Origin: Marchantia polymorpha subsp. ruderalis
Taxonomy: Eukaryota > Streptophyta > Marchantiopsida > Marchantiales > Marchantiaceae
Direction of reading: 5' to 3'
Assembly: GCA_037833965.1 (NCBI GenBank)
Contig: AP031358.1
Span: forward strand, 23,258,001 to 23,322,000
DNA: 64,000 nt
Shown: one piece after another, positions 10,106 through 42,240 of the stretch
How positions within the stretch are numbered: position 1 is the stretch's first letter
Layout of the letters: each line of letters opens with the position of its first letter
Translations under genes and position numbers: made by a program
Notes under the pieces: model-generated
Seen by the model: the letters and a program-made list of their open reading frames with translations, nothing else
Databases searched by the model: none
Told to the model about the DNA's origin: nothing

Positions 10106-10111
10106 TTTATA
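10106..10111 (-). promoter_or_regulatory. TATA box of solo LTR promoter
   Basis: The minus strand reads GAGGGTATAAAGTAG, matching the TATA region of the other family A LTRs. It lies just downstream of the end of the U3 ORF copy. Confidence 0.65.
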
Positions 10112-10155
10112 CCCTCTAAGGTCCTAACTAACACTACGCTCCACTATCTGTTACT

Positions 10156-12729
10156 CTAAACTCCTGCACGAAACCAAACTACACTACTGCACTCTGCAGA
10201 TCCGGTGCTGCGCCTCCTGCGCGCCGGACTGCCTCGCACTTTCTCTCTACCCTGCCAATCTTCCGACCGGCTGCGCAACCCCAGTCGCCGAAGGACGGCA
10301 GTCACTTCCGACTCTAAGTGCGCCATAGTATCGCGCGCACCCGACAAGAAGGCTTCTAATTTCCTCGCTACTCGCCGCCAACTCCGATTGTCACCCTCCG
10401 TCAATGCCGCCGCCCGAAGCTCAAACTCCCTGAGTGTGATCTTCTCTTGGGCCGCCACTTCCCAATGGGCGTATCCTCTTAGACAGTGAGTCACCCGCGT
10501 CACCAACTCTTCTCGCGTCCGGCTGCTGCCTTCCACCTCTGCTAGCTGCATCTGCGCGCTGCGTCCTCAATTCCGCGCACTCGGATTGCAAGTTGCGCAA
10601 CAACTCCTCATCCTCCTTGCGCGTGCTTTGACTTTCTTCTAATGCGCGCGTCTGGCGCGCAAGCTCCTCTGTTAGAACGCGGTTTTGTCTCCGCTCTTCC
10701 TGCAATTCCGACTCGATCTTTGCCCGTATTAGCTCGGCATCCGCCTGGGCTTTCGTCGCCACATCCTCCCGCTGTTGTTGCAGGGTTTGGTGTAGCCTCT
10801 GCGTGATCGCCAGGTGCTGTCGGAGGGCAGTATACCTATCCTGCAATGTTTGGCACCTAGAGGCCCAAGTGGCCACCTTGCTCCTCGTCTTGCTCTTGAC
10901 AATCTCCACATAAGACTGCGGTTTTCTGGAACTCGAGTACTTTGATGTCTTGCAATCCAAATATCGCAGGAGTGGCACTATCTGCTCGCACAATACCCCT
11001 GTTGGCGTCTTCTGCACAGAGTCCGCTTCCTGCTCTTCCGAACTCGTCTCATCCTCTGTTTCGAGGATTTCGGTCGCCACAGAATCTCTTGGCGACTCCC
11101 TGGAACTGTGGCGCGCGGCAGCTTCCGCCGCGACTGCCGCTCCACTCCCTGCTAAAATATCCAAAGCAGTGGGGGATCCCACTGCCTGAGCCCCTGTTCC
11201 GGCTTGATCTTCGGTTCTCGAAGGGGTCGGCGCCGCAGTTACTTTTGTCACCCTTGCACCGCCCGCTTCTACTGCCTGCTCTTCCGGCGCGATCTGCGCT
11301 GAGGGTGTCTTCGCCAGAGGTGTGTCCGCCGAAGGCGCCCGCACAATGGTCACCGGCCTTGTCCGATTCGCAGTCGGCGAATCTGGCCGACTCTCAGTTG
11401 ACCGACTCGCAGTCGGCCGACTAGTAGTTGTCCGACTGGCGGTCGGATCTACCTTGCACGTCTTCACTCCACTTGGCCTGCTTGCTGGAGGTGTTTTCCC
11501 GGAAGCGCCTTCTGCCGAAGACGACCCTCTGAGGGTTGTTGGCTCGTCAGCCAAACTCCCTTCTGCTTCCGGCCTGCTATCCGGTTCAACGCGCTGCTCA
11601 GTTGGCCGTACTTCAGTTGGCCGACTTTCAGTCGCCCGACTCGCAGTCGGCCGACTGTCAGTTCGCTTGTCTTCTTCTGGAGGCATCGGTGCCTTCTGCG
11701 CAGAGGTGTTCGCCGACCTCCCCAGAATCTGCGCGATTATCTCTTCCTGCGTGGGCAGGATACTCCGCCGGACCGGAGTACGCCCGGTCTCCTCAGTACT
11801 AGTTGGCAACACCGCTTTGCGTGCCCTTTGTTTCGGCCGGCTGTGAGGCTCGTTGGTTGGCCGACTTCGAGTCGGCGCAGCGGGAGCTTCCGCCTGCCTG
11901 TCTTCAGGTCTCTCATCCCATTTCCGCTTCCGCGGCGCGCGCTCACTTCGACGCTCTTCTGCTGCTCTTGCTGGAGCCGGAGCTGGAGTTGGAGTTGGAC
12001 TAGCAGGTGCTTCGTCCGGATCTGTGTCCACTTCGGCCTCCCGCAAGTATCTACCTGGATAACTCCGGGTCAGCAGCGGAAACCGTTCTTGGGATGCTTG
12101 GCAACTTTGAAAAGATCATTGTAGGAGATTTCTTCCTCCTTGGACACCTTCACGCTCTCGGCCTCGAAGAGGAGAAACCCTTCCTCGCCTGCACACCTTC
12201 CTAACACCTGCGCCCAGTCACTAATGTCCCACCTCTCGGGATGTGGGCGGAATCCGCGCGAGGGCTTGTTTTTCTCCTGCAAATACTCGCGCACCATCTC
12301 CGGACATGTCCAGTTCCATCCCCACAGGAGGAAATCAAGCTTCAGCCTTGTTAACACATCTTGGAATGCGCGCAGACCGATCTGCGGCACTCTGAGTGGA
12401 GACACTCGCAGCTGGGGGACCTTCGACATCTTCCTTGCGTTTCCTGCACACACACAGACGTTCTCCCTTCCGCTCGATCTCTCACAATCGCCGCTGCGCG
12501 TCGGCCGCTCAGACACTGACTGAAATCGCTCTCTCTTCTCTTGCGCGCTCAACTTCGCTGCTCGCAAACTCTCTGCAAGGTCCGTCAAGGTCCTCGCGCA
12601 ACGTGTCTCCGCACTCTCTCTTCTCACTGCAGGTCTCTCCGCCCTTGCGCTTAGTCTCTGAAGCTGAAAACTCACAATCAAGAATGAGAGAATGAGACTG
12701 GAGAGCAGTCTTTTCTTCTCCGAATTCAA
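10156..12729 (-). pseudogene. LTR-encoded ORF, diverged copy with deletion and frameshift
   Basis: The N-terminal part (12729-12070) carries the conserved domain: LRAFQDVLTRLKLDFLLWGW, then DWAQVLGRCAG and a KVSKEEE stretch. The match breaks near 12070 and resumes at about 12046 with the EVDTDPDE stretch. About 90 residues present in the intact copy (from the DYKDRFRRTL region to the NCLTAAEL region) are missing. The downstream frame (12046-10421) has a Pro/Ser/Thr-rich linker with an SRPTASR-type repeat encoded near 11380-11665, then a coiled coil. A further frame change near 10500 leads to the conserved C-terminal end (RSTGSAECS, VWFRAGV). It is a pseudogene of a separate subfamily. Confidence 0.82.
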
Positions 12730-13830
12730 GATCGCCCAACGTTCTCATTGGTTCCAATCAAACTTGATTACGCAGCCGGCTATACGGCCTCACGGTTCTC
12801 CCTCGCATGCTCGAATTCACGACTCCGCACTGCGCGCATTCGCATGCGTGGACGTTGAATTCTCCCGCCGCCATCGTCTTCCGGACTCGAGTTCGCCATC
12901 GTCTTCCGGACTCGAGTTCGCCGCAGTGGAGCGTATGCGTCGACTAGGTTGTCTTTTCCTAACCTGACCATCGCCGGAGGCGTATTGCCGCTGGCGTATT
13001 CTTTCTCCGTCGGCGCCTCGCTGGAGGCGCACATCAAGTCAGCGTGAATTACACCGGCGCGTATTCGTACCACTTCTTTTCTCCGTTCTGCCCCGCCTAT
13101 CGCCGACGGCGCATATCCCGCCGGCGCGAATTATGCCAGCGCACCCGCCTATCCGCGCCACGTCGGAGGCGTACATCCGGCCGGCGCTTCTCTTCCGTTG
13201 CGCAGCCGTCAAAGGCGCTTCCGCCTCTGAGTTGATCTCCTCTCATGAGCGCGTGGTTCCGCCAAAGGCGCATCGCCGAAGGCGTACGGGAGTCCTTTCC
13301 GACGGTGAACCCTAGCGCGAATAGCGCATGTCCGGATGCGAGTTTTCCGACGCTCATAACTTCTTCGTCCCTGATCCATCTCCAGCGCTCTTGGGCTTGT
13401 TAGAACAAGCGTCCCGAGCTCTTTTCAATGAAACCTTAACCAACTAGAACTACTGTGAATCCTGATCGTTATGAAGGTTTCCCTCCCGCGCTAGCGGCGC
13501 ATTGCCGAAGGCGCACTCATGGTCGGAAGCCTTCAGAGGTCCTTACTGGCTTCTGATGTCTTCAGCGACATCTCCTCCGGAGGTGTCTGTGCCGGAAGCG
13601 TACCTTCCCTAAGCGCTGGAAGCGCGTGGGTAGAGACACCTCAGTAAAGGAGATCTTGCCGAAGGCGTTTGGCGCTGGTACGTCCAACTTCGCGATTCTT
13701 CGTGACCTCGTGACAATCTCCTCAATCCACTTTATTTATCGTACCAATTCCTAACTACATACATTGCTTCGGTACTTCTTTTCTAAAATTGTTTAAATTC
13801 TGCAAAAAAAACAAAAAGTGTGTTACCACA

Positions 13831-14034
13831 ACATGATCCTTCCAAACAACGCCGTCACGACCCTCCAACAAGAGAGCTCCAGAAGGTAACACCTCCCGCA
13901 CCCGCAAGATTGTGCGTCCCGCCGTCACATCCAATGTCGTCGGTGCAGTCTGCTGTAGATAGACGTAGTCTCCCACATGGAAACTACGAATTGACGGTCG
14001 ATAACCTCCTCCCTGAATGGTTGCATACTGCAAC
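13831..14034 (-). pseudogene. Element M Pol: integrase C-terminal (SH3-like) segment
   Basis: This short open segment lies between two solo LTR insertions. It encodes the typical gypsy integrase C-terminus (FHVGDYVYLQQ, then a VLPSGALLLEGRDG strand pattern). Its upstream side joins in frame to the integrase core at 19424 once the LTR at 14035-19423 and one GCAAC copy are removed. Its downstream side joins to the PHD finger piece. This small region therefore connects three separated parts of one polyprotein. Confidence 0.88.
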
Positions 14035-14499
14035 TGTGGTACCCCACTTTTGGCAATTTTGAGGAAATTAAAACATTTTTGGAAAACTGTACCCTTGCAG
14101 CATTGTAAATAGCCTTCGGTACATCAAAACAGAGTGAATCCGGAAGATCGCGGGGATTCTCGAGGGATCTTGTAGAATCTGGGATTTGGGGTGCAGCAGT
14201 AAGGTCAGGCACCACCCTCCCTGCGAGCTCCGCAGTTAGGATCTCTACGGCGCAAGGCGCAAAACCCGCCTTCGGAGGTTGCGTCCGCGGCTGTAGGGAA
14301 ACCCCCGTAATTAGGTAACCCTCGGGCGCCTTGACCAAGTTAGGGTCCCGTTGGAAAGAGCTCAACGCGCTGATTCTAACGAGCCCAAGAACGCTTGGAA
14401 CGGACGAGGACTTAGGGAGTTATCGCTACTGGAAGAAACGGAGGCGGTCGCCTCCGGCGGAAGGATTTCGCCACCGGCGCGAATTCCGCCTACGCGGAA

Positions 14500-15020
14500 G
14501 GGGGATTCAAGTTTTGTCCTATGCGCGGACGAAGGCGTTCGCCTCTGCACAGGCGAAGTAGGGTTAGGGAAGGCGCGAAGTCCGCCTACGCACAGGCGCG
14601 GCCTGTGCACAGGCACTTCGGCGTTGGCGGAAAATCCGCCTTGGGCCCTAGAAATGCGCCTTGTGAGGTAGAAAGTGTACGGCGCCTTCCGCGCCAGCGC
14701 AGCGCCGCGTACGTCGGAAGAGCCGCCAGAGTAATCCAATAGGTACGGACCGTGCGGACGGCACGGGTGGATGCGCTCTTGGACGGACGGAGTTGCGGCG
14801 GCGGGAGCGCCGACGGAGAGACAAGGAACGGACAGACTGGACGGAGACGGCTGACCACGGTCAACGCCTTCCGCGCCAGCGCAGCGCCGCGGACGGAATT
14901 CGCCTGTGCACAGGTGAACGCCTGTGCACAGGAGGATGTTCAAGTTCAGCGCCGGCGGAGAATCCGCCGATGCCCCTGCCTGCGCACAGGCAGGAGTTGA
15001 ATTTTTGTCCGACATGCGGA
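14500..15020 (+). repeat. Palindrome-rich leader upstream of the U3 ORF
   Basis: Short inverted motifs of the type GCCTGTGCACAGGC, plus GCCGAAGGC-like quasi-palindromes, occur many times here (for example around 14593, 14903 and 14920). Equivalent leaders occur in the LTRs ending at 33601, 38903 and 46579, where some centres change to ACGCGT. Antisense open frames across this stretch are a by-product of GC-rich repeats. Confidence 0.7.
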
Positions 15021-15278
15021 CACACGCGTCAAGGCAGAAGGAGATTGGCCGAGGGGCGGTACGAACAAGTGTACCGCGCAAGGCGGAAAACTCGCCTTCG
15101 GCGCTACGCCCCCATGTCCGGAGGGTGACACGCTCGCGGAGTTCAAATCCGCCAATTCGAGCGTGAGAGTTTAATCGACGACGGCGGAGCGTGAAGCCGC
15201 GCGTGAGAGCGAAGACCGTTCCAGCGTACAGCCGGCGCGGCCATCAAGTGAGACGTTCTTCACGACCAAGAGCCGACC

Positions 15279-18200
15279 ATGACCTTCGACCGGGCGGCGG
15301 AGAACGTCCCATTCTTGAATTCGCGATTCCAATCTCTTGTGCGCGCTGCGCGCATCCATCTGCTGGCTGCGGACCATTCTCGACGCCGCCACACAGGAGA
15401 TTTCTTGTTGATTGAGGAAGGAGTGAGTGCGCGTGATTTGGAATTGAGAGCGATTAGAGTTTGCCGAGAGAGAAAGAAACGCGGACAGTGCGGAAGTAGA
15501 ATGAGCGGGCGAGCGAACCCCAGGAACGCAATGACGAGACCGAGCAGATTGCGGATGGTGCCACTTCGCCTGCCGCAGAACGGGCTGCGCGCTTTCGAAG
15601 AGCGCTTAATAGCAAGAAAGCTCGATTTCTTGCTATGGGGATGGAATTACATCTGCGCGAATATGGTGCGCGAGTGGCTAGAGCCACAGGGACCACCCTC
15701 GCGCGGATTGCGTCCGCATGTTGATCGGTGGACAGTCCAAGATTGGGCGCAGGCGTTGGGAAGATGTGCTGGCATGCCAGGGCATCTCCTTTTCGACAGT
15801 GAGAGCATCAAGGTGACCAAACAAGAAGAGGCGCAATTTGTGGAGCTGTTCAAGACCGGGAGGTCAACCAAGAATGGGTACAGGACCCGTGATTACAAGG
15901 ATCGATTTCGCCGGACTTTGTCCGCGGCGCTGATGCAATTACTGCAGCCGCACCGTGCCTGCTACATCACATTGTGGCAGGTCTCTTTTGTGGAGTGCGT
16001 CATCGAGGGAACTCCCATTCACTGGGCGAGCATCCTGCACAGGGTGATGCGACAGCACGCGTTTGAGGAGAAGGGGGGAACTCTAAACCATCTTTCTCCT
16101 TTCCTCATCAATTTTTATCGACAGCGGAATTGTTTGACAGCGGCGGAGCTTGAACATTTTCCGCCATTGTCCATCGACCATCCCGGGAAGTATGTGCGGA
16201 AGAACGAGGTCGATACTGACGCAGAGGAGTCACCGACTTCTACCCCATCAAGACGGAGGGACGAAGGGAGACACACTCCTGCAGCGCGAGTGCCGCGGAA
16301 GCGGCGATGGAGGGAAGAGTCCGAAGAGGAGCAGCATCAAGAACCCTCTGCTCCCATTCGACCGCGGCCGCTGTGCGAGCCATACAGCCGGCCGAAACAG
16401 AAGGCACGCAGACTGGTGTTACCAGCTGACAGTGCAGACACGGCGACAATTGCGACGGAGATAGGAAGTGCGTCGCCAGAGAGGCGAGAGGAAGCGCGGA
16501 CGACCGCAGGAGCAACGGGCCACGCTGCAACCTCGTCGGGAGAGAGGCCGCCTACGGGCCAAGGGCCTCCGGAGTTACCACGTGCGATGCGGACAGAGGT
16601 TCCGTTTGCGCACAGGCGAACCTCCGCGGACGGACGAGCCTCCGCGGACCGGAGAACACAAGTGGACGTGGATTTACGCTTACGCGTGGGAAGGAGCAGT
16701 CCGCCGGTGCACAGGCGCTCGCCTGTGCACAGGTCACCTGTGCACAGAACACCTCCGCACGTGCCGCCTGTGCACAGGCAAGAATCACCCCCGTTCCAAC
16801 GTAGGAAGGGGAAGGAGCCGGCGGAAGAACCGCCTACGAGACACCGGCCCTCGGGGCCAGACCCTCCGGCGCACCACGCGCCGCAATTTGCGCCTTCGGC
16901 GCCAGGGCCTTCGAGCAGAGGAGATACGAGCAGAGAGCGTGCGGAGGCCGCACCATCGGCGGGAAGTCCGCCGATAGATGCGCCTTCGGCGGTAGGGCCT
17001 ATAGGCCAAGGAACATCGGGCGTGCGGCCCCCGGCCATGTCGCCTTCGGCGATAGATGTCCGCGGCGCTACGCCTGCGGCGGACAAGGCGCCGGCAAATG
17101 CGCCTGCGCACGGGCCGGGCACAGCCCCCACGGACCGATCGAGGGAGCAGCAGACGGAGGAGCGGAGTGACTGTCCGCGGGATGAAATCTCGATACGCGA
17201 TGCGCAATCCAACCCCGCGCAGCCACCCTCCGCTCAATCGCCTTCGGCGACGGACGACGGCGACAGAGAGAATGCGGTAGGCAATCAACCAGCGAGCGAC
17301 GGGGATGCCGCTCGGATACATTCGCCTTCCGCCTTAGACATTTTGGCGACGAGCAGCGAGGCTGCAGCCGTGCCTTCGCAGGCAGCACGCGTCGAGGACG
17401 TGCAGCCCCACTCGGGGCAGTCGCCGACACAATCAATGGCGACTGAAATTCTCCACTCGGATGATGACGACGGAGGCTCCACGGAAGAAATGTCAGGAGC
17501 AGAAGACACCGAGGAGGAGGAGGAGGAAATTGTTGGAGCGCCGGCGGCGGCGCTCTCTGAGCAGGTGATTCCGTTGCTGCGGTACTTGGATTGCAAGGTC
17601 GATAAATACGCCGACCCACTCCAGCCGGGATCTTACATCGAATTAGTGCGCAGGCGGACTCGCACTAAAGTCCACACCAGCAAGCTATTAGCTAGAGTAG
17701 ACCAGGAGTTGAGGGACTTGAAGGAGAAGCATGAGTGCTTGTGGGGACAGTACAAGCTTAATCAGAAATTCTACAAGCACTCCGAGAAGATGAAGGATGA
17801 GAAGCTGGGTGAGCTCACCAAGGAGCAGGTGAAGGTCAAGGAAGCACTCAACTCTGAGCAGGCCCAGAATCGGATTTTGTCAGAGGAGCTCGTGCGACAG
17901 ACGCGGTTGTTGGAACAATGTCAGCTCGCACGGCAGGCGGATGAAGAATTAATCCGCAGTTTGCAGTCAGAGTGTGGCGAATTGAGAGCGCAACGTGCTG
18001 AAGCCGAATCGCAATTAGTGACGATTGAAGAGGATCGCAGGAAGGAGGCGGATCGCACGAAGGTGGAGACGGCGAGGCGAGTCGCCCACTGTCTCAAGGG
18101 CTACGCCCACTGGGAAGTGAAGGCGCAGGAGAAACTCACACTGCGTGAGTTTGAATTGCGCGCAGCCGGGTTGTTGTCAGGCGACAGTAGGAGTCGGCGG

Positions 18201-18416
18201 AAGGTAGCGAAGAAGCTCGAGGCCTTTCTGTCGAAGGCACAGGATACCATGTCCGCCCTCGAGGGGGAGGTGTCCGCGGCGTTGCAGCGGTTGGGACTGC
18301 GTAGTCGAGCGGAAGAGTGGCAGGGTAGGGAGTTAGTGCGCGGCAGTCGGCCGCGCAGGAGACGTAGTACAGGTTCCGCGGAGTGTAGTGTAGCGTGGTT
18401 CCGTGCAGGCGTGTAG
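15279..18416 (+). CDS. LTR-encoded ORF protein, intact (1045 aa, unknown function)
   Basis: A single open frame lies wholly inside the U3 of a solo LTR. The start ATG (MTFDR) is shared by the copies starting at 32347, 37722 and 45366. Residues about 93-305 form the conserved domain (LPQNGLRAFEERLI, KLDFLLWGWNYIC, DRWTVQDWAQALGRCAG, RHACYITLW-like and IHWASILHRVMRQHAFEEKG stretches). Residues about 320-725 are a Pro/Ser/Ala-rich, repeat-driven linker. An acidic run (DDDD, then EEEEEE) is at about 727-750, and a heptad-like coiled coil covers about 800-1005, ending in a basic tail. There is no zinc knuckle, protease or RT motif. I do not recognise the family for certain; the N-terminal domain should be compared with the 'putative plant transposon protein' and plant mobile domain families. 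Whether it is expressed is unknown. Confidence 0.8.
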   Translation: MTFDRAAENVPFLNSRFQSLVRAARIHLLAADHSRRRHTGDFLLIEEGVSARDLELRAIRVCRERKKRGQCGSRMSGRANPRNAMTRPSRLRMVPLRLPQNGLRAFEERLIARKLDFLLWGWNYICANMVREWLEPQGPPSRGLRPHVDRWTVQDWAQALGRCAGMPGHLLFDSESIKVTKQEEAQFVELFKTGRSTKNGYRTRDYKDRFRRTLSAALMQLLQPHRACYITLWQVSFVECVIEGTPIHWASILHRVMRQHAFEEKGGTLNHLSPFLINFYRQRNCLTAAELEHFPPLSIDHPGKYVRKNEVDTDAEESPTSTPSRRRDEGRHTPAARVPRKRRWREESEEEQHQEPSAPIRPRPLCEPYSRPKQKARRLVLPADSADTATIATEIGSASPERREEARTTAGATGHAATSSGERPPTGQGPPELPRAMRTEVPFAHRRTSADGRASADRRTQVDVDLRLRVGRSSPPVHRRSPVHRSPVHRTPPHVPPVHRQESPPFQRRKGKEPAEEPPTRHRPSGPDPPAHHAPQFAPSAPGPSSRGDTSRERAEAAPSAGSPPIDAPSAVGPIGQGTSGVRPPAMSPSAIDVRGATPAADKAPANAPAHGPGTAPTDRSREQQTEERSDCPRDEISIRDAQSNPAQPPSAQSPSATDDGDRENAVGNQPASDGDAARIHSPSALDILATSSEAAAVPSQAARVEDVQPHSGQSPTQSMATEILHSDDDDGGSTEEMSGAEDTEEEEEEIVGAPAAALSEQVIPLLRYLDCKVDKYADPLQPGSYIELVRRRTRTKVHTSKLLARVDQELRDLKEKHECLWGQYKLNQKFYKHSEKMKDEKLGELTKEQVKVKEALNSEQAQNRILSEELVRQTRLLEQCQLARQADEELIRSLQSECGELRAQRAEAESQLVTIEEDRRKEADRTKVETARRVAHCLKGYAHWEVKAQEKLTLREFELRAAGLLSGDSRSRRKVAKKLEAFLSKAQDTMSALEGEVSAALQRLGLRSRAEEWQGRELVRGSRPRRRRSTGSAECSVAWFRAGV

Positions 18417-18448
18417 CGTAGTGTAGTGTAGTGCTAGGACTTAGAAGG

Positions 18449-18455
18449 TATAAAA
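18449..18455 (+). promoter_or_regulatory. TATA box of family A LTR, downstream of the ORF
   Basis: TATAAAA sits 32 bp after the ORF stop, followed by a GGCGTTTTGCC inverted motif. A transcript of the element should start just 3' of this, so the ORF is upstream of the retroelement start site and needs its own promoter or read-through. Confidence 0.7.
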
Positions 18456-18774
18456 TAGTTCCAGGCGTTTTGCCTGGGGTTCTTTCCCAAACTCAGAAGT
18501 ATAGATCAGGAACCCATTTCCTTTGCGTGTTTGTGTCCTTGAGTTCTGTCACCACGCATGAGGAGTTACAACTTAGCGTTCCGCATTTTGTAGCTGAAGG
18601 CCTTCGGCCGAATGTTCAGAGCTAGTACATTGGTTAGAGACTTGAGTAGTTCGGATCTGCACCTGCGGGTGACTGCCGATGCTCAGAGCCAGTGACTAGT
18701 TAGATACTTGAACAGTTTCGCCCCTACACCTTCGAGTGTTTCTTTCTGATTGTACTCCTTTGGGATTTTTCCCC

Positions 18775-19345
18775 TGAATGCCAAAGTGAAGTTTTGCTAC
18801 TTCGTGTAAGCCTTGGTTGTAAATTCAGGTTACGCTGCAGCAGGTGCCTTGAGGGCAACCCCTGTAGTATTTCTGGGAATGACAAGTGCCTGAGAATTCA
18901 AACTCTTCAATAGACTGTTGTTGTGTTACTGGAATGTTTCACAGTGAGTCCTTCAGTGCGGACCTGTGTTCTCTGCGCGTTTTGTGAGTTGAGAGTGTTG
19001 TTCACCGCGTCTGAGTGACTTCGATCCGAAGTAGGTAGTCCAAACCGGGTTTCCTACACTAGCAGCAAGCTAGTGGAAGCGTTGTAAAAGCCGGAGTTGG
19101 AAGTCACTGCCCGCAGCTTTGCCGAGTGTGCTCGTGAGAGACTTTCCCCCTGAAATCTTGAAGTAGAGGTCCTAACGGATCTCTGGGTTGTGTTTCTGTA
19201 GTTTCAGGTGTGTGTGTGTGTGTGTTACGCTGCACTGTGCGACCTCCGAGTGCGCTCCGAGTGGACACTTGCAGTATTTCTGGGAGTGACAGTTGCCTGA
19301 GAATTCAAACTCCTCAATAGTCTGTTAAAACGTGACACTTTGTAC
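18775..19345 (+). repeat. Degenerate tandem duplication in R/U5
   Basis: The segment around TATTTCTGGGAATGACAAG, followed by CCTGAGAATTCAAACTC, at about 18868-18910 recurs at about 19273-19315, roughly 400 bp later. Both are preceded by a CCCCTGAA...TTCAGG stretch and a TTACGCTGCA motif. A (GT)n run occurs only in the second unit (19208-19226). All family A and B LTRs in the window share this doubled R/U5. Confidence 0.65.
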
Positions 19346-19423
19346 CCTGTGTGTTCCTCTGTCCCTGTGGGTTCGACCTTTCTACCACTATATTGCAGTT
19401 TTAGCCTTTAGTGGGTTATTACA

Positions 19424-20809
19424 GCAACGTATCTCTATGTTGAGCAATCGCAAGATTCTCAAACGCTGCAGGCATAACTCTCCGAAAGAGCTCTGCACGT
19501 TGAGAACCTACTCTCACCCACATATTCGGGTCATCAAGGTTCACCATCTCGCTAGACTCACGGAGAATCGATGTTGGCAAGTCTGGATCTCGGCCGTACA
19601 ATAGAAAATATGGTGAGAAGGAAGCCAAGGATGCCTGCCGACTGAACCAATATCCCATGGCCAACCACGGTAACTGGATATCCCAGTCCCCAAGATGACC
19701 GTTCTGCAGGCTATACTTGCGCAACGCCCTCTTCACCGTCTGTACAACACTTTCAGCTAAACCATCCGCCTCTAGATGATCTCGCGACGTGGTCCGATGA
19801 TCAATCAGTGCCTTGTCGCACAAGACCTGAAACTCCGTTCCCTGATTGGTCAACACCTCAGCTGGTGCACCATAGTGACTAAGCACTCTATCAAGAAAAG
19901 CATACGCTACTCCCTCACTTGCCTTGTCAGGTAATGCCACCAACTCAATCCACTTGGAGAAATGCTCCACCATCACCAACACATACCGATGATGTTGTAC
20001 AGTCAAAGGTAGTGGTCCAGCAAAGTCCAAACTCCAACGGTAACCCAACCCCATGATGATTAATGGATGTAACACTGGTGTCGGGGCATTGAATGATGCC
20101 CTCATTCGATCACAAACCATGCAACGTGATACCAACTGCTATACCTGAGTATGCATACCACGCCATCAATACTGACCAAGGAGTAAGCTGTATGTACGCT
20201 TCACTCCAAAATGTCCCAACTCCTCATGAGCATGCCTCACAATGCGTGCTCTCTGGGCTGGATGTGGTACTACTCGTACCCTACCGTCCTTCCATACTCG
20301 GAGAACATGTGATCCCTCCAATCGGTACCTCTTGGCCCGTTGGAGAACACGATCTCGCTCCTTGGCACCCACTGTGCCTGGCACCATGCTGGTCCATAGG
20401 AACTCCAACACCAATGCATCATTGTGTACATCACGCTGATTCACACCACCATCCTCAACCTCAGGATCTGGAGATCGACCATCTACTCTCTGACTAGAGT
20501 AAGATGTCAGATGATCCTCTCTGCTGGAGTTTCCACGTAACCAACACATGAAGGCAGATGCATGCCAACCAGGCAGCATCTCCTCGTCAACCTCACCATG
20601 CCATCTAGCTCCAGTGTCATCCTCTTGGCTAGTGCATGGGTTTCGACTCAAACCATCGGCATCTAGGTTCGCAACTCCAGGTCTATGCATCACCTGAAAG
20701 TCGTACACCTGTAAGATGAGAGCCCACCGTGCAAGCTTCCCTGTAAGCTTGTCGGACTCCATCAACCACTTGAGCGGTTGATGATCAGTTTCAAGGGTGA
20801 ACTGCGTAC
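19424..20809 (-). pseudogene. Element M Pol: RNase H end and integrase core
   Basis: The minus-strand frame starts in RNase H (ETDHQPLKWL type, near 20780) and continues with GKLARWALILQ and the LDADGLSRN linker. The integrase zinc finger (H-x3-H, then C-MVC) is split by a TGA at about 20163-20165 where a Trp is expected (GQY-W-RGMH). The first catalytic Asp is present (WSLDFAGP, about 20025-20027). The second is changed to Asn (LTNQGTEF, 19845-19847). A Glu is present in the DGLAES motif. The segment stops at the GCAAC duplication of the solo LTR. The stop and the Asp-to-Asn change make this integrase inactive. Confidence 0.9.
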
Positions 20810-21580
20810 TGTAAGACCAGATATTGCATGTGTGAAATAAAACTAGAATTAGCCAAGGAATTAATCATGGTTAGGATAGTTATGACTAAATCTAGCTAGT
20901 TATGACTAAGTCTAGCTAGTTTAGCTATAATGTCTATACTTGGCGGAATAACTAGAGAAGTTCTAGAAGATTTGAGTGAGCACTTCTATTTTGTCTTGTA
21001 CAAAAGTCTAGATTCCAAGAGAAAAGACTTTTGAACTTCATGTTTAGTTTTGATTGGTTTGACTAAAGTAAGGAGTATTCCATTGGTTAGACTAAGTCTT
21101 ATGTTGACTTAGTGGAAAGTGGAAGTTCTAGAAGTTGGAAAGGCACAAATGGCATGTCGCCACCTCAATCTAGGGATTAGTAAACATCTAGAAGGTTTAG
21201 GGGGCCAATGGCATGTTGCCACATATTGATAACTAGTCAACCTTACTATGGTTTATCTTCGTAAAAGTAAGTTAGATAGAAATTACCATTTGTTACTATG
21301 GTAAATTCTCAAGTAGTATATATAGAGAGGTAGGGAAGAGCCTCTCAAGCAAGTTTGGAGAGTTCATATGTAGAGACTTGTTTCATATATGAAAGAGTGA
21401 CGAATTTTCAGTACCTTGGAGTGTCGATGAGTGTATGAGTTGGAGTGATACCTTGAGAGATTGTGTGAGAGGGTGTTTAGGTTATGAGTATGATGCGGAA
21501 TCCTAGTCTTCTAGAATCATGATGAGCTACCGAAAAGCCATCTGAGGTAAACCTTAGTGACAGTCAGCCCGGAGGTTGCA
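20810..21580 (+). repeat. 5' LTR of the gag-only element
   Basis: 771 bp, TG...CA. A TATATATA motif near 21317-21324 is the likely promoter. The stretch from about 20995 to 21580 is repeated, apparently without differences apart from one base at the edge, at 24170-24755. Confidence 0.9.
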
Positions 21581-21584
21581 TTTT

Positions 21585-21601
21585 TGGTTCCGTTGCCGGG
21601 A
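21585..21601 (+). other. Primer binding site, tRNA-Asp-like
   Basis: Four bases after the 5' LTR is TGGTTCCGTTGCCGGGA. It closely resembles the complement of the 3' end of plant tRNA-Asp used by several plant gypsy groups (TGGCGCCGTTGCCGGGGA), with a few mismatches. The remaining leader, 21602-22258, contains no ORF I can support. Confidence 0.6.
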
Positions 21602-22258
21602 CCTCAATCTAGAAGGCGGAATGTTTAGGATTCGATTTCTAGCTCAAGAGAAAGTATCCATGATGGATCACTTGGTGTTAACATTGGGGAATGAAAGAGC
21701 GGAGAGTGTGCTTGAGAGCAAAATTCCCTTTGTTTATCCCATAGTCTCATATGATAGCCTAGAATTGATTTTGTATGTTTTGTTCACGTAAACATGTCTT
21801 TTTGAGAGAAAATTGATCTTAGACACCGAAAAAGTATTTTTGAAGGTATTCTTCAAAGTTTTTATTGATTGTAGATTGGAAGATAGAGAACGTTCACGTT
21901 TTTGTTTCAGGTCTAGATCATGTGTTAACAGAAAGATATGAGAGTTAGAAGTTGAGTGGGTTTTCACGGGTATCAAAAGTTTGCTCTTTGGAAAGTTTGT
22001 ACAGAGTTGATTACTTTTTCCGTATTTCAAGTTAGGCTTTGAAACTTTGTACGAGTGTGTATTTGAAGATTACCTACGTGTGAGTCAAAATTTTACAGAG
22101 AGATCACGTCTAGAGACAAAGTTATGATGATTTGAAGTTCAGGGGGTACAAAATCAGGATAAGATAGCAAAAGTTTTGGGTTTCTTTATTTGAAGTTTTG
22201 GCCTAGAAGATAACGTTTTTGGGAGAGACCTTTTGAATGGTTTCCACCTTATGGAAAA

Positions 22259-22702
22259 ATGAGTGATCAAGGGGGCTGGAAGATTAGGTTATCCAAAGTA
22301 CCTCAAGGTTTGGATGTTATAGTGTCTCTAGACTCCAATACAAGAGAATTCAAGGTGGAGTTTGAAGAAAGAGTAGTTAGTCAATCCCCAAGAGTGAAAC
22401 GTGAGACTTGCTTTTATTGTGGAGAGGAGGGACATAAGGTTGTCAATTGTTCACTGCGGAACAAGGATAGAAGATTGAGGAGCAAGAGAACCTTGGGAGA
22501 TTTGAAACTTCACTTGGGACCATCATCGCCACATGAATTCCAAAGTGCAACCTTTTGTGACAATTGCGGAGTGATTGGACTACTAGCGGGACACGAATGC
22601 AGCGGAGTGAAGGCACTTCTGGAATCACTTGTGGAAGGGTTTGACGGCAAGCTAAGTGCTGAAACAGAGAAAGTGACCTCAGCGGGCTCAAGCTCCAACT
22701 GA
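22259..22702 (+). CDS. Small zinc-knuckle ORF upstream of gag (147 aa)
   Basis: This open frame carries a clear CCHC zinc knuckle (CFYCGEEGHKVVNC, about residues 51-64), followed by a basic stretch (RNKDRRLRSKR) and a second Cys/His cluster (CDNCGVIGLLAGHEC). It is in a different frame from the main gag ORF, which starts 212 bases downstream. Zinc knuckles of this kind bind nucleic acid in Gag proteins. A separate zinc-knuckle protein before Gag is unusual. It could be an extra ORF or a piece of a longer protein separated by a frameshift. Confidence 0.65.
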   Translation: MSDQGGWKIRLSKVPQGLDVIVSLDSNTREFKVEFEERVVSQSPRVKRETCFYCGEEGHKVVNCSLRNKDRRLRSKRTLGDLKLHLGPSSPHEFQSATFCDNCGVIGLLAGHECSGVKALLESLVEGFDGKLSAETEKVTSAGSSSN

Positions 22703-22914
22703 AGATGAAGATCATCATTCGAATGATGGAGAAGATGATGATGAGGGTAAGACTCATCGTATGCCTAGGAGAGGAGAGAGCTTTGGCTATCTTGGAACAA
22801 CCAATTCCTTTTGTGTTTCCTTTGATGAATTACTCAAGGATGGAGTTAGTGTTGTTTATATTGTATTAAGAAGCCCCATAAATTTCCAATAGAATAGAGA
22901 AAAAAAAAAATTAG

Positions 22915-24186
22915 TTGGAAATGGGGAAGCTTCCGGTGTTTTATGGGAGGGAAAATGAGGATGTAGAAGCCTTTGTTAGGGACTTCAAGAGGGCTTGCAT
23001 AGGAAACAATGAAAGGAAGAAGGTTGAGTGGGCTATGCTTTTGCCGGATTTCTTGAAGGATTCTGCTCTCAAATGGTACCAGGAGTACAAGAGAGAACAT
23101 GTGGAGGAGGACACTTGGGAGACATTGACGGAGAGCCTCATCGAAAACTTTCTTCCCAATGAAAGTTATGAAAAGCTGATGTGTGAGGTCACCTTCTTGA
23201 AACAAGGAGAGAACGAGAAGGTGAGGACCTATGTGGAGAGAACTGAGAAGTTAGAGTCGAGGTTCCACGTGGTGTTGAGGAAAGGTGGAGACGAAGTGGA
23301 TGCTACAATGGTGGGGATACGAGCAATGCTCATGAAGAACTTCGTCGGAGGTTTGAGACCCGAGATTCGAAGTAAGGTGAGATATGAGAAGCCTTCTTCT
23401 AAAGCTGAAGCCATTCGAATTGCTATTAGAATGGAGGAAAGCTTAGAAGATGATGATTCTAGCTTGGTGGCTAGAGAAGTAACTCCACCGATTGTAGGAA
23501 GATCCATGTGTTCAAATCTTGCTAGTTCATCCACAATGGTGAATCCTAATGTAGATTTGCAAAATGAGTTGAAATCTATTACGGAAACTCTAGCAGACCT
23601 CAAGATCAATGTAGTACAGTTGTGGGAGAAGAGGAATCAGAATGTAGGAGGAAGTTCTAGAGGGTATGGAAATTATCCTCCAAGAGGAAATCCACCTCCA
23701 CGAAACTTTGCAGTTTCTTGTTTTACTTGTGGCGGTCCTCATTTTCAGCGAAATTGTCCTAACCCTCGACAACATGATGGAGTTCGGCACAACAACAATG
23801 CACCGGCCACACAACAAGCCAAGGATAAGGGAGTAGCATCCATTGATGTATTTCCTCATCAATGCACCTTTGAGAAAGGAGAGAGCTCAAAGTCGAAGGT
23901 GGATATCCTTGCACATGAGAAGAAACGTGCTCGATTTGCAGATGAGTCAATTTCCATGGAAGACATGCCAAGTCGGAGTACACGATCAAGTGGAGTTGGT
24001 CAACCAAGAGTACCAAGAAAGAAGTTGGGCATGAATGACTTTTCCATTTCATCTTCTCAAGCTAAGTATGACGTGGTGGAAGATGTAGGAAGTCAGAAGG
24101 CCAATATCACAGTTGGCCAACTCATTGCTTTAAATCCAGCCATACGGAAGGAGTTGAGAGGAGGTTTGTCTTCTACAAAAGTCTAG
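22915..24186 (+). CDS. Gag protein of the gag-only element (423 aa)
   Basis: Residues about 1-150 match the plant retrotransposon Gag domain (LPVFYGRENEDVEAFVRDF, ALKWYQEY, LIENFLP, then RTYVERTEKLESRF). A short CCHC knuckle (CFTCGGPHFQRNC) lies at about residues 268-280, after a Pro/Arg-rich stretch. The tail is basic and Ser-rich. The last codons and the TAG run into the truncated 3' LTR (TACAAAAGTCTAG), so the natural C-terminus, and any protease that followed, has been lost. The frame is free of stops. The protein would form virus-like particles with help from another element's Pol. Confidence 0.85.
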   Translation: MEMGKLPVFYGRENEDVEAFVRDFKRACIGNNERKKVEWAMLLPDFLKDSALKWYQEYKREHVEEDTWETLTESLIENFLPNESYEKLMCEVTFLKQGENEKVRTYVERTEKLESRFHVVLRKGGDEVDATMVGIRAMLMKNFVGGLRPEIRSKVRYEKPSSKAEAIRIAIRMEESLEDDDSSLVAREVTPPIVGRSMCSNLASSSTMVNPNVDLQNELKSITETLADLKINVVQLWEKRNQNVGGSSRGYGNYPPRGNPPPRNFAVSCFTCGGPHFQRNCPNPRQHDGVRHNNNAPATQQAKDKGVASIDVFPHQCTFEKGESSKSKVDILAHEKKRARFADESISMEDMPSRSTRSSGVGQPRVPRKKLGMNDFSISSSQAKYDVVEDVGSQKANITVGQLIALNPAIRKELRGGLSSTKV

Positions 24187-24755
24187 ATTCCAAGAGAAAA
24201 GACTTTTGAACTTCATGTTTAGTTTTGATTGGTTTGACTAAAGTAAGGAGTATTCCATTGGTTAGACTAAGTCTTATGTTGACTTAGTGGAAAGTGGAAG
24301 TTCTAGAAGTTGGAAAGGCACAAATGGCATGTCGCCACCTCAATCTAGGGATTAGTAAACATCTAGAAGGTTTAGGGGGCCAATGGCATGTTGCCACATA
24401 TTGATAACTAGTCAACCTTACTATGGTTTATCTTCGTAAAAGTAAGTTAGATAGAAATTACCATTTGTTACTATGGTAAATTCTCAAGTAGTATATATAG
24501 AGAGGTAGGGAAGAGCCTCTCAAGCAAGTTTGGAGAGTTCATATGTAGAGACTTGTTTCATATATGAAAGAGTGACGAATTTTCAGTACCTTGGAGTGTC
24601 GATGAGTGTATGAGTTGGAGTGATACCTTGAGAGATTGTGTGAGAGGGTGTTTAGGTTATGAGTATGATGCGGAATCCTAGTCTTCTAGAATCATGATGA
24701 GCTACCGAAAAGCCATCTGAGGTAAACCTTAGTGACAGTCAGCCCGGAGGTTGCA
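24170..24755 (+). repeat. 3' LTR of the gag-only element, 5'-truncated
   Basis: It matches 20995-21580 with no difference I can see apart from one base at the left edge (TCTTCTACAAAAGTC against TCTTGTACAAAAGTC). The first about 185 bp of the LTR, and with it the polypurine tract, are missing and replaced by gag sequence. Confidence 0.88.
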
Positions 24756-26065
24756 GTACCAAACAAGTAACACCTGAAGTGCGCCACAGCCCACACCGCT
24801 GCCAAGCACTCTCCCTCGTACGAACTATACCGCGACTCCGCTGCATTGTTCGAACGACTAGCGTACGCAACCACAAACTCCTTGCCCTCATCATCACGCT
24901 GCGTCAACACCGCTCCAAGTCCCAACATACTCCAATCAGTGTGCAATTGGTATGGACGACCTCTGATAGGTCTCCTCAACATGGGAGCGGCCACCAACCT
25001 GGCCTTGAGCTCAACAAAAGCTCTCTCCTGCTCATCTCCCCATTGCCACTCCTGATCTGACTTCAGCAACTGGTTCAAAGGCTTGGCTATAGCACTGAAC
25101 CCCTTCACATACCTCCGGTAGTAGTTCGCTAAACCCATAAATGCACGAACTCTACTCACATCCGTGGGACGAGGGATGCGTGCAATAGCCTCCACCTTTG
25201 CTTGCTGAACTCCTAAACCACCTGGGTATATCACATGACCCAAGTACTCAACCTTCTCCTGGAAGAACTTACACTTCCCAGGATGTAACCTCAAACCATG
25301 AGCCTTCAATCGCTCAAACACAATCTGCAAGTGTATCTGGTGTTGCTCCACAGTGTCACTAAACACCAAGATATCATCAATGTAACATCTGACAAAATCC
25401 AGCCCCGCCAGGATTTTGTCCATAACCCTCTGAAACTCAGCAGTTGCATTCTTCAACCCAAAGGGTAAGAATCGCCACTAATACAAACAATCCTTGCCGT
25501 GGGAGTTGACGCCCCAAAACGCTGTCTTGGTTTTGTCCTCCTCCCGAATTGGCAACTGATGGTATCCTGCCCGAAGATCCAAAGTACTAAAAATCCTCGC
25601 ATGTCCCACCACATCGAAGATCTCCTCAGGTGTAGGCATGGCATACTTATCGGACTTCGTCTGCCGATTGATAGGACGGTAGTCTCCACACATGCGCCTA
25701 TCCGTGTAGTTGCCATGTACATCCTTCTTCACCGGCATGACAGTGGCTGACGCATACTCACCATGCAATAACTCCACTAGTCCAGCCTCCAGTAGGTCCA
25801 ACATCCTACTCCGAATCAAATCTCTCTCCATCTCACTGTATCGATAAGGACGACGGAAGATTGGCGTATCACTAGCCAATTCTATCCGTATACCGGGTCC
25901 AATCAACGCCCCCAACTCCTTCATACTGAAGGCAAAACAACTCCTATAGTCTCGTAGGAATTGTGTCAATTGTCGCCTCTCTCCTCCTGTGATCTGGGAA
26001 TCAATCAATGGCTCCCATTCCTCCTCCATAGGCACACTAGAGGGAGGCGACACTGTCAATCGTTG
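24756..26065 (-). pseudogene. Element M Pol: reverse transcriptase and RNase H
   Basis: The minus-strand frame continues directly from the DNMT frame after a TAG at 26066-26068. RT motifs are RRPYRYSEMERDLI, the MCGDYRPIN block, STLDLRAGYHQLPI, then (after a TAG at 25478-25480 and WRFLPFGLKNA) the catalytic box CYIDDILVF with YIDD at 25373-25384. The thumb (VRAFMGLANYYRRYVKGFS) and RNase H start (HTDWSMLGLGAVL, YASRSNNAAESRYS) follow. The gag-only element at 20810-24755 cuts it in RNase H. All parts share one frame, so only the two stops separate methyltransferase, RT and RNase H. Confidence 0.93.
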
Positions 26066-27760
26066 CTACGCTACACCCTGCAAAGAAGGGTTCTCTGTAC
26101 CCTTCTTCGTAGCCGCCCCCACCTGAGAATCCTCTCCAACTGCATGGGCTGCAACTCTGGCAAATCCTTTCGTCACGTCCCATAAACTCCAAGGATGACA
26201 AATATCTCGCCTATCGCCCCCAGCCATCCACGTCAAGCAATTCAGGTCCATAGCCTGACCCAAAACCTGACGACGCGACGCCTCGGAAACTGAAGAAGCC
26301 GCGGTCACACCAGTAAGAAACCCCATCGCACGCTCTCTCTCATCAGCGTTGGGCTCCACCAACTGATGTAGGGTACTGTCCCATAGTAGTCCAGGTCCCC
26401 CATCACGATATGCATGTGATGCCGGATAACTGACAGATTTAGGTAAAGCCATCCGAGGCTGACCTACGCGGTTCACCAACGCCATAGGTGACCTGTCAGC
26501 AACTCTCACTACTTGAGAGTGCCGGGAAACATCCAAGATACTGTCAACGGTGAGTGTAGAATCACGCTGCACCAAATCATAGGCATGACGCAATATCTCA
26601 CGTGGCAAAAGGTTGGTCCACCACAAACGTGCACGATGAGCCCGGGATCCAACCTTCGCAGCATCCAACAGTACTGCTGATCCAATCCATGCTCGGACTT
26701 GATGGACACTCGCCATCAACTGGGCCCGAGTGTCACCCAACAATGGTACGTTCTCCAGAATGTATGCTGGAGAACGTGTCTGCTGCACTTGGAGATGACG
26801 TAACACTCGCATCATCTCCCAAAACATCCGAGATCTGGGATCATGCAACCCTGTCCCATGTCCAGCGCGTGTGTGTCCCTGACATGGCCAACCCGCAATC
26901 ACCATATCAACATGGCCAACGCGGTCAAGGTCTGGCGCCCCCAGCAACAAAATGTCTGAAGGCAACGCCTTCTGGAATCCTCGAACAGCTGATCGTGGCA
27001 ACAACGAAGGAAAACGCCGCATCAACTGTGCAACATGCCGTGAAGAGACTCGATGTGCAGTCTCGTCCTTCTCCACATACAAGTATCTCCGTACGAGAAT
27101 GCCTGACTGCAACACTGCAGCCAAACCTATGCTGATTCCACCAAAAAGATCCAGCAAACAAACACCCTCTGAGGAATACTCCCATGCAATAGGTGTAGTA
27201 ACCAATGGAGACAATGCGCTAGACCCACTAACTAGCCGATCAGCTGAAGCCATGTTTGGCTCTGCTGGTAAAGAGGCTTCACTCCAAGCCTTTTTCACCA
27301 ACCTATCAGCCTCTAACTGTAGTGCCTGGCACGAACTCCACAGTGGAACATCTAAGGGTGAAGTCACCGCCGCTGTGAAACTCACAACCTCCTCCACATC
27401 CTCGTAGACTGAGGTATCGTCGGCAGACATGTTCCCTTCCAACAACTCATCAGGCCATGTAAGCACTCCGCTAAAACCCGCAACAGATGCCAAGACCGCT
27501 GATGAAGATCCAAGAGGTCGATCCCGAGAAATAAATCTCACTAGCAGCTCGCTCAGACGTCCATCTCCGGACTGCCAACCAGGACGATATGCGGCAGTCT
27601 CCGTCCAATAGTCCATCCAAAAGCCCATCGGGTATAACACCACTCCCCCAACAAGCACATCATATGACTCTCCTGATGTAACCACAGCACGAACTCCAAA
27701 CTGCGAGCTATCATGAGGGTGATCATGCCTCAACTGCACCGCTATGCTCTCCCTGGTCAT
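26066..27760 (-). CDS. Element M Pol: protease tail and DNMT3-like cytosine-5 DNA methyltransferase domain
   Basis: A 564-codon open frame. Residues 1-85 are the end of a gypsy retropepsin (ESYDVLVGGVVLYPMGF, AAYRPGW). Residues about 198-512 are a C5-cytosine methyltransferase with motifs in the normal order: I (LLDLFGGISIG, 202-211, SAM binding), IV (AGWPCQGHTRAG, with the catalytic Cys at 293, bases 26882-26884), VI (ENV, 336-338), VIII (SRAHRARLWWTNL), a motif IX-like NADERERAMGF, and X (RRQVLGQAMDL). The spacing and the AHRAR-WW-NL block resemble DNMT3/DRM enzymes more than DNMT1, but motif IV has PCQ, not PCN. There is no stop inside the domain. The frame ends in TAG and RT continues in the same frame. 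Methylation activity is predicted, not shown. Confidence 0.9.
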   Translation of the reverse strand: MTRESIAVQLRHDHPHDSSQFGVRAVVTSGESYDVLVGGVVLYPMGFWMDYWTETAAYRPGWQSGDGRLSELLVRFISRDRPLGSSSAVLASVAGFSGVLTWPDELLEGNMSADDTSVYEDVEEVVSFTAAVTSPLDVPLWSSCQALQLEADRLVKKAWSEASLPAEPNMASADRLVSGSSALSPLVTTPIAWEYSSEGVCLLDLFGGISIGLAAVLQSGILVRRYLYVEKDETAHRVSSRHVAQLMRRFPSLLPRSAVRGFQKALPSDILLLGAPDLDRVGHVDMVIAGWPCQGHTRAGHGTGLHDPRSRMFWEMMRVLRHLQVQQTRSPAYILENVPLLGDTRAQLMASVHQVRAWIGSAVLLDAAKVGSRAHRARLWWTNLLPREILRHAYDLVQRDSTLTVDSILDVSRHSQVVRVADRSPMALVNRVGQPRMALPKSVSYPASHAYRDGGPGLLWDSTLHQLVEPNADERERAMGFLTGVTAASSVSEASRRQVLGQAMDLNCLTWMAGGDRRDICHPWSLWDVTKGFARVAAHAVGEDSQVGAATKKGTENPSLQGVA

Positions 27761-27960
27761 AAAGTAAGACCTGTTGCTGGCGCCACCCAGGGATGTTTGG
27801 GCAAGGTTCCAACTCTGACCTTCGAATGCCTAAACTAATGCATGCAGCCTTGCCCAACATCAAGGGCTATGCACCAGAATCCAACAAATCTCTGGCTAGG
27901 ACATACACGTGTCCAGTAGAACTCACTAACCGAAATAGACCACTTTGGTTGTCCACCATA
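27761..27960 (-). pseudogene. Element M Pol: retropepsin-like protease N-terminal part, frameshifted
   Basis: In a neighbouring minus-strand frame the aspartic protease active site DSGA is encoded at 27870-27881 (LLDSGA), followed by a TAG and then PLMLGKAACISLGI. Near 27800 the sequence changes frame into the one that leads to ESYDVLVGG and the methyltransferase. This shows that the methyltransferase lies between protease and RT. Upstream, at about 27965, the sequence changes to family A LTR, so gag and the 5' LTR of element M are lost. Confidence 0.75.
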
Positions 27961-27965
27961 CAATA

Positions 27966-28540: not shown

Positions 28541-28571
<31 letters not shown>

Positions 28572-33601: not shown

Positions 33602-33653
33602 CCTCAGCAAAGGAGATCTTGCCGAAGGCGCCGAAGGCGTTTGGCGCTGGTAC
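33602..33653 (-). repeat. Fragment of an older family A LTR, part 1
   Basis: 52 bp matching 13645-13685 of the solo LTR at 9173-13830 (CAAAGGAGATCTTGCCGAAG). It continues at 38904-39053 after the inserted LTR at 33654-38903. Confidence 0.75.
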
Positions 33654-33847: not shown

Positions 33848-33882
<35 letters not shown>

Positions 33883-41415: not shown

Positions 41416-41446
<31 letters not shown>

Positions 41447-42204: not shown

Positions 42205-42240
42205 CCTTCTAAGTCCTAACTAGCACTACACTGCACTACG

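What the first reader, a model, noticed from the sequence alone, without database searches (positions are those of the whole stretch)
26066..27760. DNMT3-like DNA methyltransferase inserted between protease and RT of a gypsy retrotransposon
Seen directly: an open frame with retropepsin tail, then cytosine-5 methyltransferase motifs I, IV (catalytic Cys), VI, VIII, IX-like and X, then in the same frame the RT domain. Known: cytosine methyltransferases have been reported in LTR retrotransposons of a few eukaryotes, including dinoflagellates and a charophyte alga, as far as I recall. A land-plant copy with this order would be notable. Inference: the element may methylate its own DNA or cDNA, perhaps to hide or to persist as a silenced copy, or to influence its insertion site.
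Basis: partly seen in the sequence, partly recalled or inferred. Interest (0 to 1): 0.92.

Follow-up and report, generated by a model that had tools for sequence, protein, structure and literature searches.

The report
Liverwort retrotransposon carrying DNA methyltransferase
A jumping gene present in many copies in what looks like a Marchantia liverwort genome carries its own DNMT3-type DNA methyltransferase as a conserved, selected part; such enzymes in mobile elements were reported before in an alga and dinoflagellates, so a land-plant model could now be used to ask why a transposon would carry the mark that normally silences it.

The parts
27798..27962 (-). retropepsin piece of element M, out of frame with the MTase ORF in this copy; M is cut off here and its gag was not found in the window
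   Evidence: tblastn of P0076/P0012, 82-84%; stops in the MTase frame above 27830
26066..27760 (-). 564-codon frame: PR tail (aa 1-85), linker, DNMT3-type MTase, tail
26219..27175 (-). DNMT3-type cytosine-5 methyltransferase domain (aa 196-514)
26879..26893 (-). motif IV GWPCQ with the catalytic-type Cys293
   Evidence: Cys in 80 of 80 non-gap rows of 87
26060..26068 (-). in-frame UAG ending ORF1, followed by CAACGA (CAACCA in 19 of 20 other copies)
24756..26065 (-). RT-RNase H, same frame as the MTase; extra TAG at 25478-25480 in this copy
20990..24755 (+). nested LTR element with its own gag, inserted in M's RNase H region (terminal repeats 99.8% identical; left limit approximate)
19425..20813 (-). 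end of RNase H, integrase zinc finger and rve core of M (with stops)
14035..19423 (-). unrelated element X1 inserted in M, 5-bp target duplication GCAAC
13831..14034 (-). integrase C-terminal part of M
   Evidence: tblastn P0013 aa 456-535
9173..13830 (+). unrelated element X2 inserted in M, 5-bp target duplication ACATG
8942..9172 (-). C-terminal end of M's pol with PHD finger (8951-9085) and stop
   Evidence: Pfam PHD 1.5e-11; 85% to P0013
8654..8773 (-). repeat B1, preceded by a purine-rich tract
8360..8653 (-). repeat A (internal copy); joined to B1 as CGACA-GC-TGTCATG
8241..8359 (-). repeat B2, 3' end of M (...CACGACA)
   Evidence: 97.5% to B1; flank at 8239 and below matches the paralogous repeat at 57408-60683

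Best explanation
The frame is part of a decayed copy of a Ty3/gypsy-type retrotransposon family (M) that stably encodes a DNMT3-type methyltransferase. Shown from sequence: ORF1 is gag-PR-DNMT3 (about 1,360 codons); a UAG in a CAR-YYA context follows; ORF2 in the same frame is RT-RNase H-integrase-PHD (1,042 codons); the ends are A...B-A-B and insertions carry 4-bp duplications. Inferred: most ribosomes stop at UAG and make Gag-PR-DNMT, while a few read through to make the pol fusion, so the methyltransferase is made and packaged at Gag level (about 0.75). In the particle it methylates CpG on the element's double-stranded cDNA before integration (about 0.5), and the PHD finger on the integrase reads the H3 tail at the target (about 0.55). 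The B-A joint, which is the element's two ends joined by GC, serves as template to restore or circularise the ends (about 0.5). The likeliest benefit is that premethylated cDNA enters repressive chromatin quietly, is tolerated by the host and escapes counter-selection (about 0.3). Relatives in Klebsormidium and bryophytes descend from one DNMT-bearing lineage (about 0.65).
For: DNMT3 identity. Stable part. Selection: dN/dS of the MTase 0.21 (CI 0.13-0.35) within 17 copies and 0.12 (0.07-0.18) against 2 subfamily copies, RT 0.24 and 0.08. Catalytic residues kept in distant kin: Cys293 in 80 of 80, Asn337 in 83 of 83, Glu336 in 81 of 83 non-gap rows of 87. UAG CAA CCA in 19 of 20 copies matches the type I leaky motif UAG-CAR-YYA (PMC3542737, passages). 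Proteins ending just behind DNMT recur in kin: 24 of 83 rows end 10-11 aa behind it (23 of these came up in the Klebsormidium-type search) and 11 end 78-84 aa behind it. Co-inheritance: PR/DNMT distance correlation 0.96 over 21 rows, 0 of 5000 permutations; RT or integrase of DNMT-bearing P0054, P0094 and P0095 is 41-48% identical to M against 26-36% to other gypsies in the window. Split repeats. PHD.
Against: No activity was tested. PMC5890265 reports that the K. nitens gypsy DNMT gave no methylation in yeast (called inconclusive there, as DNMT3B also failed). CpG o/e of M (0.73) is below that of the X elements (1.03-1.10) but not below three other repeats in the window (0.47, 0.48, 0.68), so there is no special self-methylation scar (copies 0.63-0.90 by region). 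The window copy has lost 33 residues behind motif X and carries CGA instead of CCA. All 20 copies read were picked for long frames, so k of 20 counts are biased towards intact copies. Readthrough is judged from one inherited context. No K. nitens DNA was seen; its RT piece matches M at only 28.6% over 91 aa, and the place of DNMT3A in the trees is unresolved. No host DNMT3 gene of a plant was compared.
Confidence: 0.7

Rival explanations
1. Independent captures: bryophyte elements and Klebsormidium elements each took up a DNMT3 of their own host, and the shared order and repeats are convergent.
For: PMC5890265 presents the K. nitens case as its own acquisition; mean MTase identity between the two groups is 35% and PR identity 19% (distances 0.65 and 0.81); DNMT3A placement unresolved.
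Against: Same slot (PR-DNMT, protein end, then RT), same split-repeat layout as its Fig. 4c legend describes, and metagenomic elements of the same order.
Confidence: 0.3
2. The DNMT domain is kept for nucleic-acid binding or RNA methylation in the particle, not for DNA methylation.
For: The K. nitens domain gave no methylation in yeast; placement with Gag fits a nucleic-acid-binding role; no special CpG depletion.
Against: Catalytic Cys, ENV and HRxR are nearly invariant over distant members, and sequence and fold are closest to DNMT3A/B/C (DNMT2-type RNA enzymes score 25-27 bits).
Confidence: 0.2
3. The enzyme acts in trans on the host genome, changing host silencing rather than marking its own cDNA.
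For: Copies on all 9 contigs could supply enzyme.
Against: Fusion to gag-PR suggests particle-bound protein; a trans-acting benefit is shared with competing elements (inference). No expression data.
Confidence: 0.15
4. A host methyltransferase gene or retrocopy was inserted by chance into one gypsy copy.
For: None beyond the single window copy.
Against: Same position upstream of 77 of 93 RT copies and in other species, intronless, under selection.
Confidence: 0.01

Closest known systems
KnitGypsy-Dnmt3 of Klebsormidium nitens (PMC5890265)
   Same: Gypsy domain set with DNMT3 in the pol region, DIRS-like A-coding-B-A-B repeats (its Fig. 4c legend), purifying selection; K. nitens proteins P0107, P0130, P0141 and P0157 are kin of M's DNMT.
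   Different: M is in a land plant; mean identity between the two groups in the domain is 35%. A conserved leaky-type UAG behind DNMT, the PHD finger and 4-bp duplications are described here; 'PHD' does not occur in that paper's main text.
SymbioDIRS-Dnmt3 (PMC5890265)
   Same: DNMT3 in a retrotransposon; its domain methylated CG de novo in yeast.
   Different: Tyrosine recombinase, dinoflagellate, different element class; M has a DDE integrase and target duplications.
PAT/Ngaro elements with split direct repeats (PMC4157794, passages)
   Same: A1-B1-A2-B2 repeats; DIRS-group elements carry a putative methyltransferase domain.
   Different: They are tyrosine-recombinase elements; M has an rve integrase, and its MTase is a DNMT3.
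Orchid Ty3/gypsy with an AlkB-type m6A demethylase domain (PMC9289625, abstract and passages)
   Same: Land-plant gypsy with an acquired enzyme acting on a methyl mark.
   Different: RNA demethylase in an additional ORF; unrelated enzyme; angiosperm.
Animal and plant DNMT3 genes (PMC6453930, PMC12344493, passages)
   Same: Catalytic domain family.
   Different: Host genes, some with ADD/PWWP or other domains; M's is element-borne in a gag-PR polyprotein.

Membership tests
DNMT3 family of cytosine-5 methyltransferases | Sequence and fold closest to DNMT3 rather than to DRM, DNMT2 or bacterial enzymes | tested here: met
DNMT3 family of cytosine-5 methyltransferases | Canonical motif order and catalytic Cys, ENV, HRxR | tested here: met
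DNMT3 family of cytosine-5 methyltransferases | Groups with host DNMT3 genes in a tree | tested here: inconclusive
   Only one DNMT3A fragment available, long branch, unresolved
DNMT3 family of cytosine-5 methyltransferases | De novo CpG methylation of DNA | not testable with these tools
   Needs an enzyme assay
DRM methyltransferases | Rearranged motif order (VI-X before I-IV; recalled) | tested here: not met
   Motifs I, IV, VI, VIII, X in canonical order
KnitGypsy-Dnmt3 kind | DNMT3 between PR and RT of a gypsy-type pol | tested here: met
KnitGypsy-Dnmt3 kind | DIRS-like A-coding-B-A-B repeats | tested here: met
   the K. nitens side is taken from the paper's legend
KnitGypsy-Dnmt3 kind | Common descent of the whole element with the K. 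nitens one | tested here: inconclusive
   DNMT and PR co-inherited; K. nitens RT piece too short
Ty3/gypsy (Metaviridae-like) elements | Domain order PR, RT, RNase H, DDE integrase | tested here: met
Ty3/gypsy (Metaviridae-like) elements | Identical LTRs at both ends | tested here: not met
   A alone at the 5' end (4 of 4 copies with both ends read, plus L043), B-A-B at the 3' end
DIRS/PAT elements | Tyrosine recombinase, no target duplication | tested here: not met
   rve integrase; 4-bp duplications in 4 of 4

The most novel reading that the evidence does not exclude
A streptophyte-wide lineage of retrotransposons has kept a gag-linked DNMT3 through algae, liverworts and mosses. It translates the enzyme at Gag level through a leaky stop, methylates its own cDNA inside the particle, and integrates a circle whose joined ends (B-A) are cut by a DDE integrase guided by a PHD histone reader: an element that writes one epigenetic mark and reads another to choose a tolerated, silenced life.
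Probability: 0.2. Interest if true: 0.88.

Novelty: new variant of a known kind. Interest (0 to 1): 0.64.

Why it matters
DNA methylation is a main weapon of plants against transposons, so an element that has kept a methyltransferase under purifying selection poses a real puzzle. The printed cases that my searches found were algal (charophyte, dinoflagellate). A young, many-copy family in a Marchantia-like liverwort puts the question into a tractable plant. The leaky-stop layout gives a concrete prediction (enzyme packaged with Gag), and the split repeats with a DDE integrase pose a second, separate question about how such an element replicates. It also warns annotators: many DNA_methylase hits in this genome are element copies, not host genes.

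Tried and rejected
Plus-strand reading: rejected. Host-gene insertion: rejected. UAG as decay: rejected, conserved. Viral-contig relatives: two scans gave 13 loci; L001, by its ORFs, is a phage-like contig with a bacterial-type C5 MTase, and L002-L013 matched over short stretches only; I did not annotate these but used six ORFs from them as outgroup rows and two. CpG depletion as a scar of self-methylation: not special to M. First thought that each copy captures a different host transcript in its 5' leader: weakened, as most leaders share stretches at 76-99% identity, though L035, L038 and L050 have another version. Dating from B1/B2: 1 difference in 1539 positions over 13 copies, 3 of 120 in the window copy; no clock was applied. 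Placing DNMT3A in the tree: failed (long branch).

Rows dropped before counts: the tree left out 20 of 70 non-redundant rows as shorter than 285 aa; one search put three of these back (P0017, P0023, P0130) and added P0141. The motif census used 87 domain rows, the ORF-end census 83 of 147 rows with a domain, the PR/DNMT test 21 of 22 chosen rows. In one search L043 was left out, and the last stretch against the subfamily is unusable.

Full report

THE WHOLE ELEMENT IN THE WINDOW. Mapping M. polymorpha relatives back on the window shows one element, M, on the minus strand, broken by three younger insertions: PR 27962-27798, MTase ORF 27760-26066, RT-RNase H 26065-24756, [nested LTR element], RNase H-integrase 20813-19425, [X1, duplication GCAAC], integrase C-terminus 14034-13831, [X2, duplication ACATG], PHD finger 9172-8942, then a B-A-B repeat end at 8773-8241. 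Gag and the 5' end were not found in the window by tblastn; one 19-residue gag hit lies in the nested element. This copy is dead: PR frameshift, 33 residues missing behind motif X relative to P0075, a second TAG in RT, stops in the integrase.

THE FAMILY IN ITS OWN GENOME. The window is part of a 241.5-Mb, 9-contig assembly. The MTase search scored 77 copies (this one included) of 829 candidates, on all 9 contigs; 28 rows list an open frame of 1,324-1,365 codons, 6 of these with a stop inside the match (my count of its rows). PF00145 has 123 matches in this genome; many coincide with these copies, the rest were not checked one by one, and a few that match the start of the profile, such as C6:12459429, may be host genes. 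A paper on M. polymorpha names five host methyltransferases of the MET, CMT and DRM classes (PMC5784723, passages); I did not test for a host DNMT3. I read 20 copies (L034-L053), all picked for long listed frames. In 19 of 20 the gag-PR-DNMT frame ends in UAG followed by CAACCA, and in 14 of 20 this is the only stop in that frame from the MTase start to the end of ORF2. In one copy Pfam finds gag (weak, 0.015), DNA_methylase, RVT_1, RNase H, integrase zinc finger, rve and PHD in this order. A PHD pattern is in 18 of 20. UAG-CAR-YYA is the type I readthrough motif of tobamoviruses (PMC3542737, two passages). The window copy has CAACGA.

ENDS. B, A and a second B close the 3' side in 14 of 20 loci, one with a shortened second B and one diverged; the B1-A joint reads CGACA-GC-TGTCATG in 16 of 20. 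At the 5' end stands A alone, starting TGTCATG, with no B in front: in 4 of 4 copies with both ends read, 4-bp duplications flank TGTCATG...CACGACA (GCCA, ACCG, CGCT, ACGT), and L043 agrees at its 5' end. So the joint B1-A is the element's 3' end, two bases, and the element's 5' end. B1 and B2 differ at 1 of 1539 positions over 13 copies, so these copies look young. This layout is the one that the legend of Fig. 4 in PMC5890265 gives for KnitGypsy-Dnmt3 (read): repeats as in DIRS, domains as in gypsy.

IS THE DOMAIN A STABLE PART? Of 93 RT copies scored (3739 candidates), 77 have a DNMT match within 2.5 kb upstream on the same strand (two of these matches I had added after reading L062 and L063). 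Of the other 16, 8 were sampled by 150 bases: 3 hold the domain, 2 hold it broken or rearranged, 3 show none; 8 were not sampled. Of 8 A repeats without a scored MTase nearby, 4 have it at or near the predicted place. dN/dS of the MTase is 0.21 (0.13-0.35) over 136 pairs of 17 copies and 0.12 (0.07-0.18) over 34 pairs against the 2 subfamily copies; RT gives 0.24 and 0.08. The post-MTase tail between subfamilies is 0.64 (0.31-1.35), near neutral. The figure for the last stretch against the subfamily is unusable, because L052 is not homologous there.

RELATIVES. Three protein searches gave 74, 36 and 64 hits, partly the same: Marchantia, Calypogeia, Riccia, Sphagnum, many metagenomic proteins and, in the third, Klebsormidium nitens. 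The order PR-DNMT-RT recurs (P0094 in one frame, P0054 DNMT-RT in one frame). Many proteins end shortly behind DNMT: 24 of 83 end 10-11 residues behind it, 23 of them found by the Klebsormidium-type search, and 11 of 83 end 78-84 behind it (window-type kin); some ends may be contig or gene-model ends. PR and DNMT distances correlate at 0.96 (0 of 5000 permutations). DNMT-bearing elements are alike outside DNMT too: P0054 and P0094 behind DNMT are 48% and 41% to M's RT against 36% to another gypsy in the window, and P0095 integrase 46% against 26-28%. The K. nitens RT piece matches M's RT region at 28.6% over 91 residues and no other gypsy in the window at E up to 1. In the tree (57 rows) the window sits with Marchantia (100/100), inside a clade with Calypogeia and Sphagnum (13 rows, 100/99); the Klebsormidium-type clade (19 rows, 100/99) is separate; DNMT3A is unresolved. 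Sphagnum rows fall nearer to Marchantia than Calypogeia does (97/95), which does not follow the host tree.

HOW IT MOST LIKELY WORKS. Shown: layout, selection, conserved catalytic residues, conserved UAG context, ends. Inferred: Gag-level synthesis by leaky termination; packaging; methylation of CpG on cDNA before integration; PHD-directed targeting; B-A joint as template or circle joint. Against: K. nitens' domain gave no methylation in yeast, though the authors call that inconclusive; CpG o/e of M (0.73) is not lower than that of three other repeats here (0.47, 0.48, 0.68), only than the X elements (1.03-1.10).

KNOWN OR NEW. PMC5890265 (parts 1-4 of 7 read; term search) describes DNMTs in retrotransposons of dinoflagellates and K. 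nitens; its main text has no 'PHD', 'moss' or 'Marchantia', and its one 'bryophyte' concerns sequences that cluster with the multi-exonic K. nitens Dnmt3. PMC12344493 (passages) cites streptophytes and dinoflagellates. My searches listed no report that I recognised as a land-plant retrotransposon with a DNMT; most subscription papers, and preprints, are not in that library, and I opened seven papers in all (parts of one, passages of six). I therefore file it as a new variant of a known kind: same kind of element, new host group, with a leaky-type UAG, a PHD finger and target duplications newly described.

Noticed in passing
window 9173-13830, 14035-19423, 28345-39053, 41220-46579: A family of about 5-kb elements (X) starting TGTAATAACCCAC and ending in CCACA, with 5-bp target duplications at the two places checked; one copy codes for a 464-aa protein without Pfam match. 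Several copies crowd this window.
   Followed up: partly
window 20990-24755 (+): A short LTR element with 591-bp terminal repeats 99.8% identical and a gag with zinc knuckle but no pol seen, nested in M: recent and probably non-autonomous.
   Followed up: no
L043 (oriented) 755-1180: Repeat A followed by AGTTGTGA and a poly(A) run of more than 100 bases in front of the element's leader; looks like a polyadenylated M RNA end joined in, which would place the poly(A) site just inside B2.
   Followed up: partly
L040 165-605 (-): An AAA-ATPase fragment (Pfam AAA 9.1e-10), PEX1-like from memory, antisense in the region upstream of gag; either flank or captured host sequence.
   Followed up: partly
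L034-L053, oriented 4001-9091: Copies differ patchily: 0.9-4.2% per 200 bases in the PR-DNMT half, 0.5-1.5% in the RT-integrase half, which suggests recombination between element types.
   Followed up: partly
L044 (oriented) 9092-9867: A B-A'-B-A-B array instead of B-A-B, as if one more round of end copying had happened.
   Followed up: no
tree: Sphagnum (moss) DNMTs fall nearer to Marchantia than those of the liverwort Calypogeia do: old paralogous lineages or horizontal transfer among bryophytes.
   Followed up: no
G000 C3:16769297-16792350; C4:3273967 and C4:3329811: Four RT copies within 23 kb on C3, and two RT matches with the same score and stop count 56 kb apart on C4 (probable segmental duplication).
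   Followed up: no
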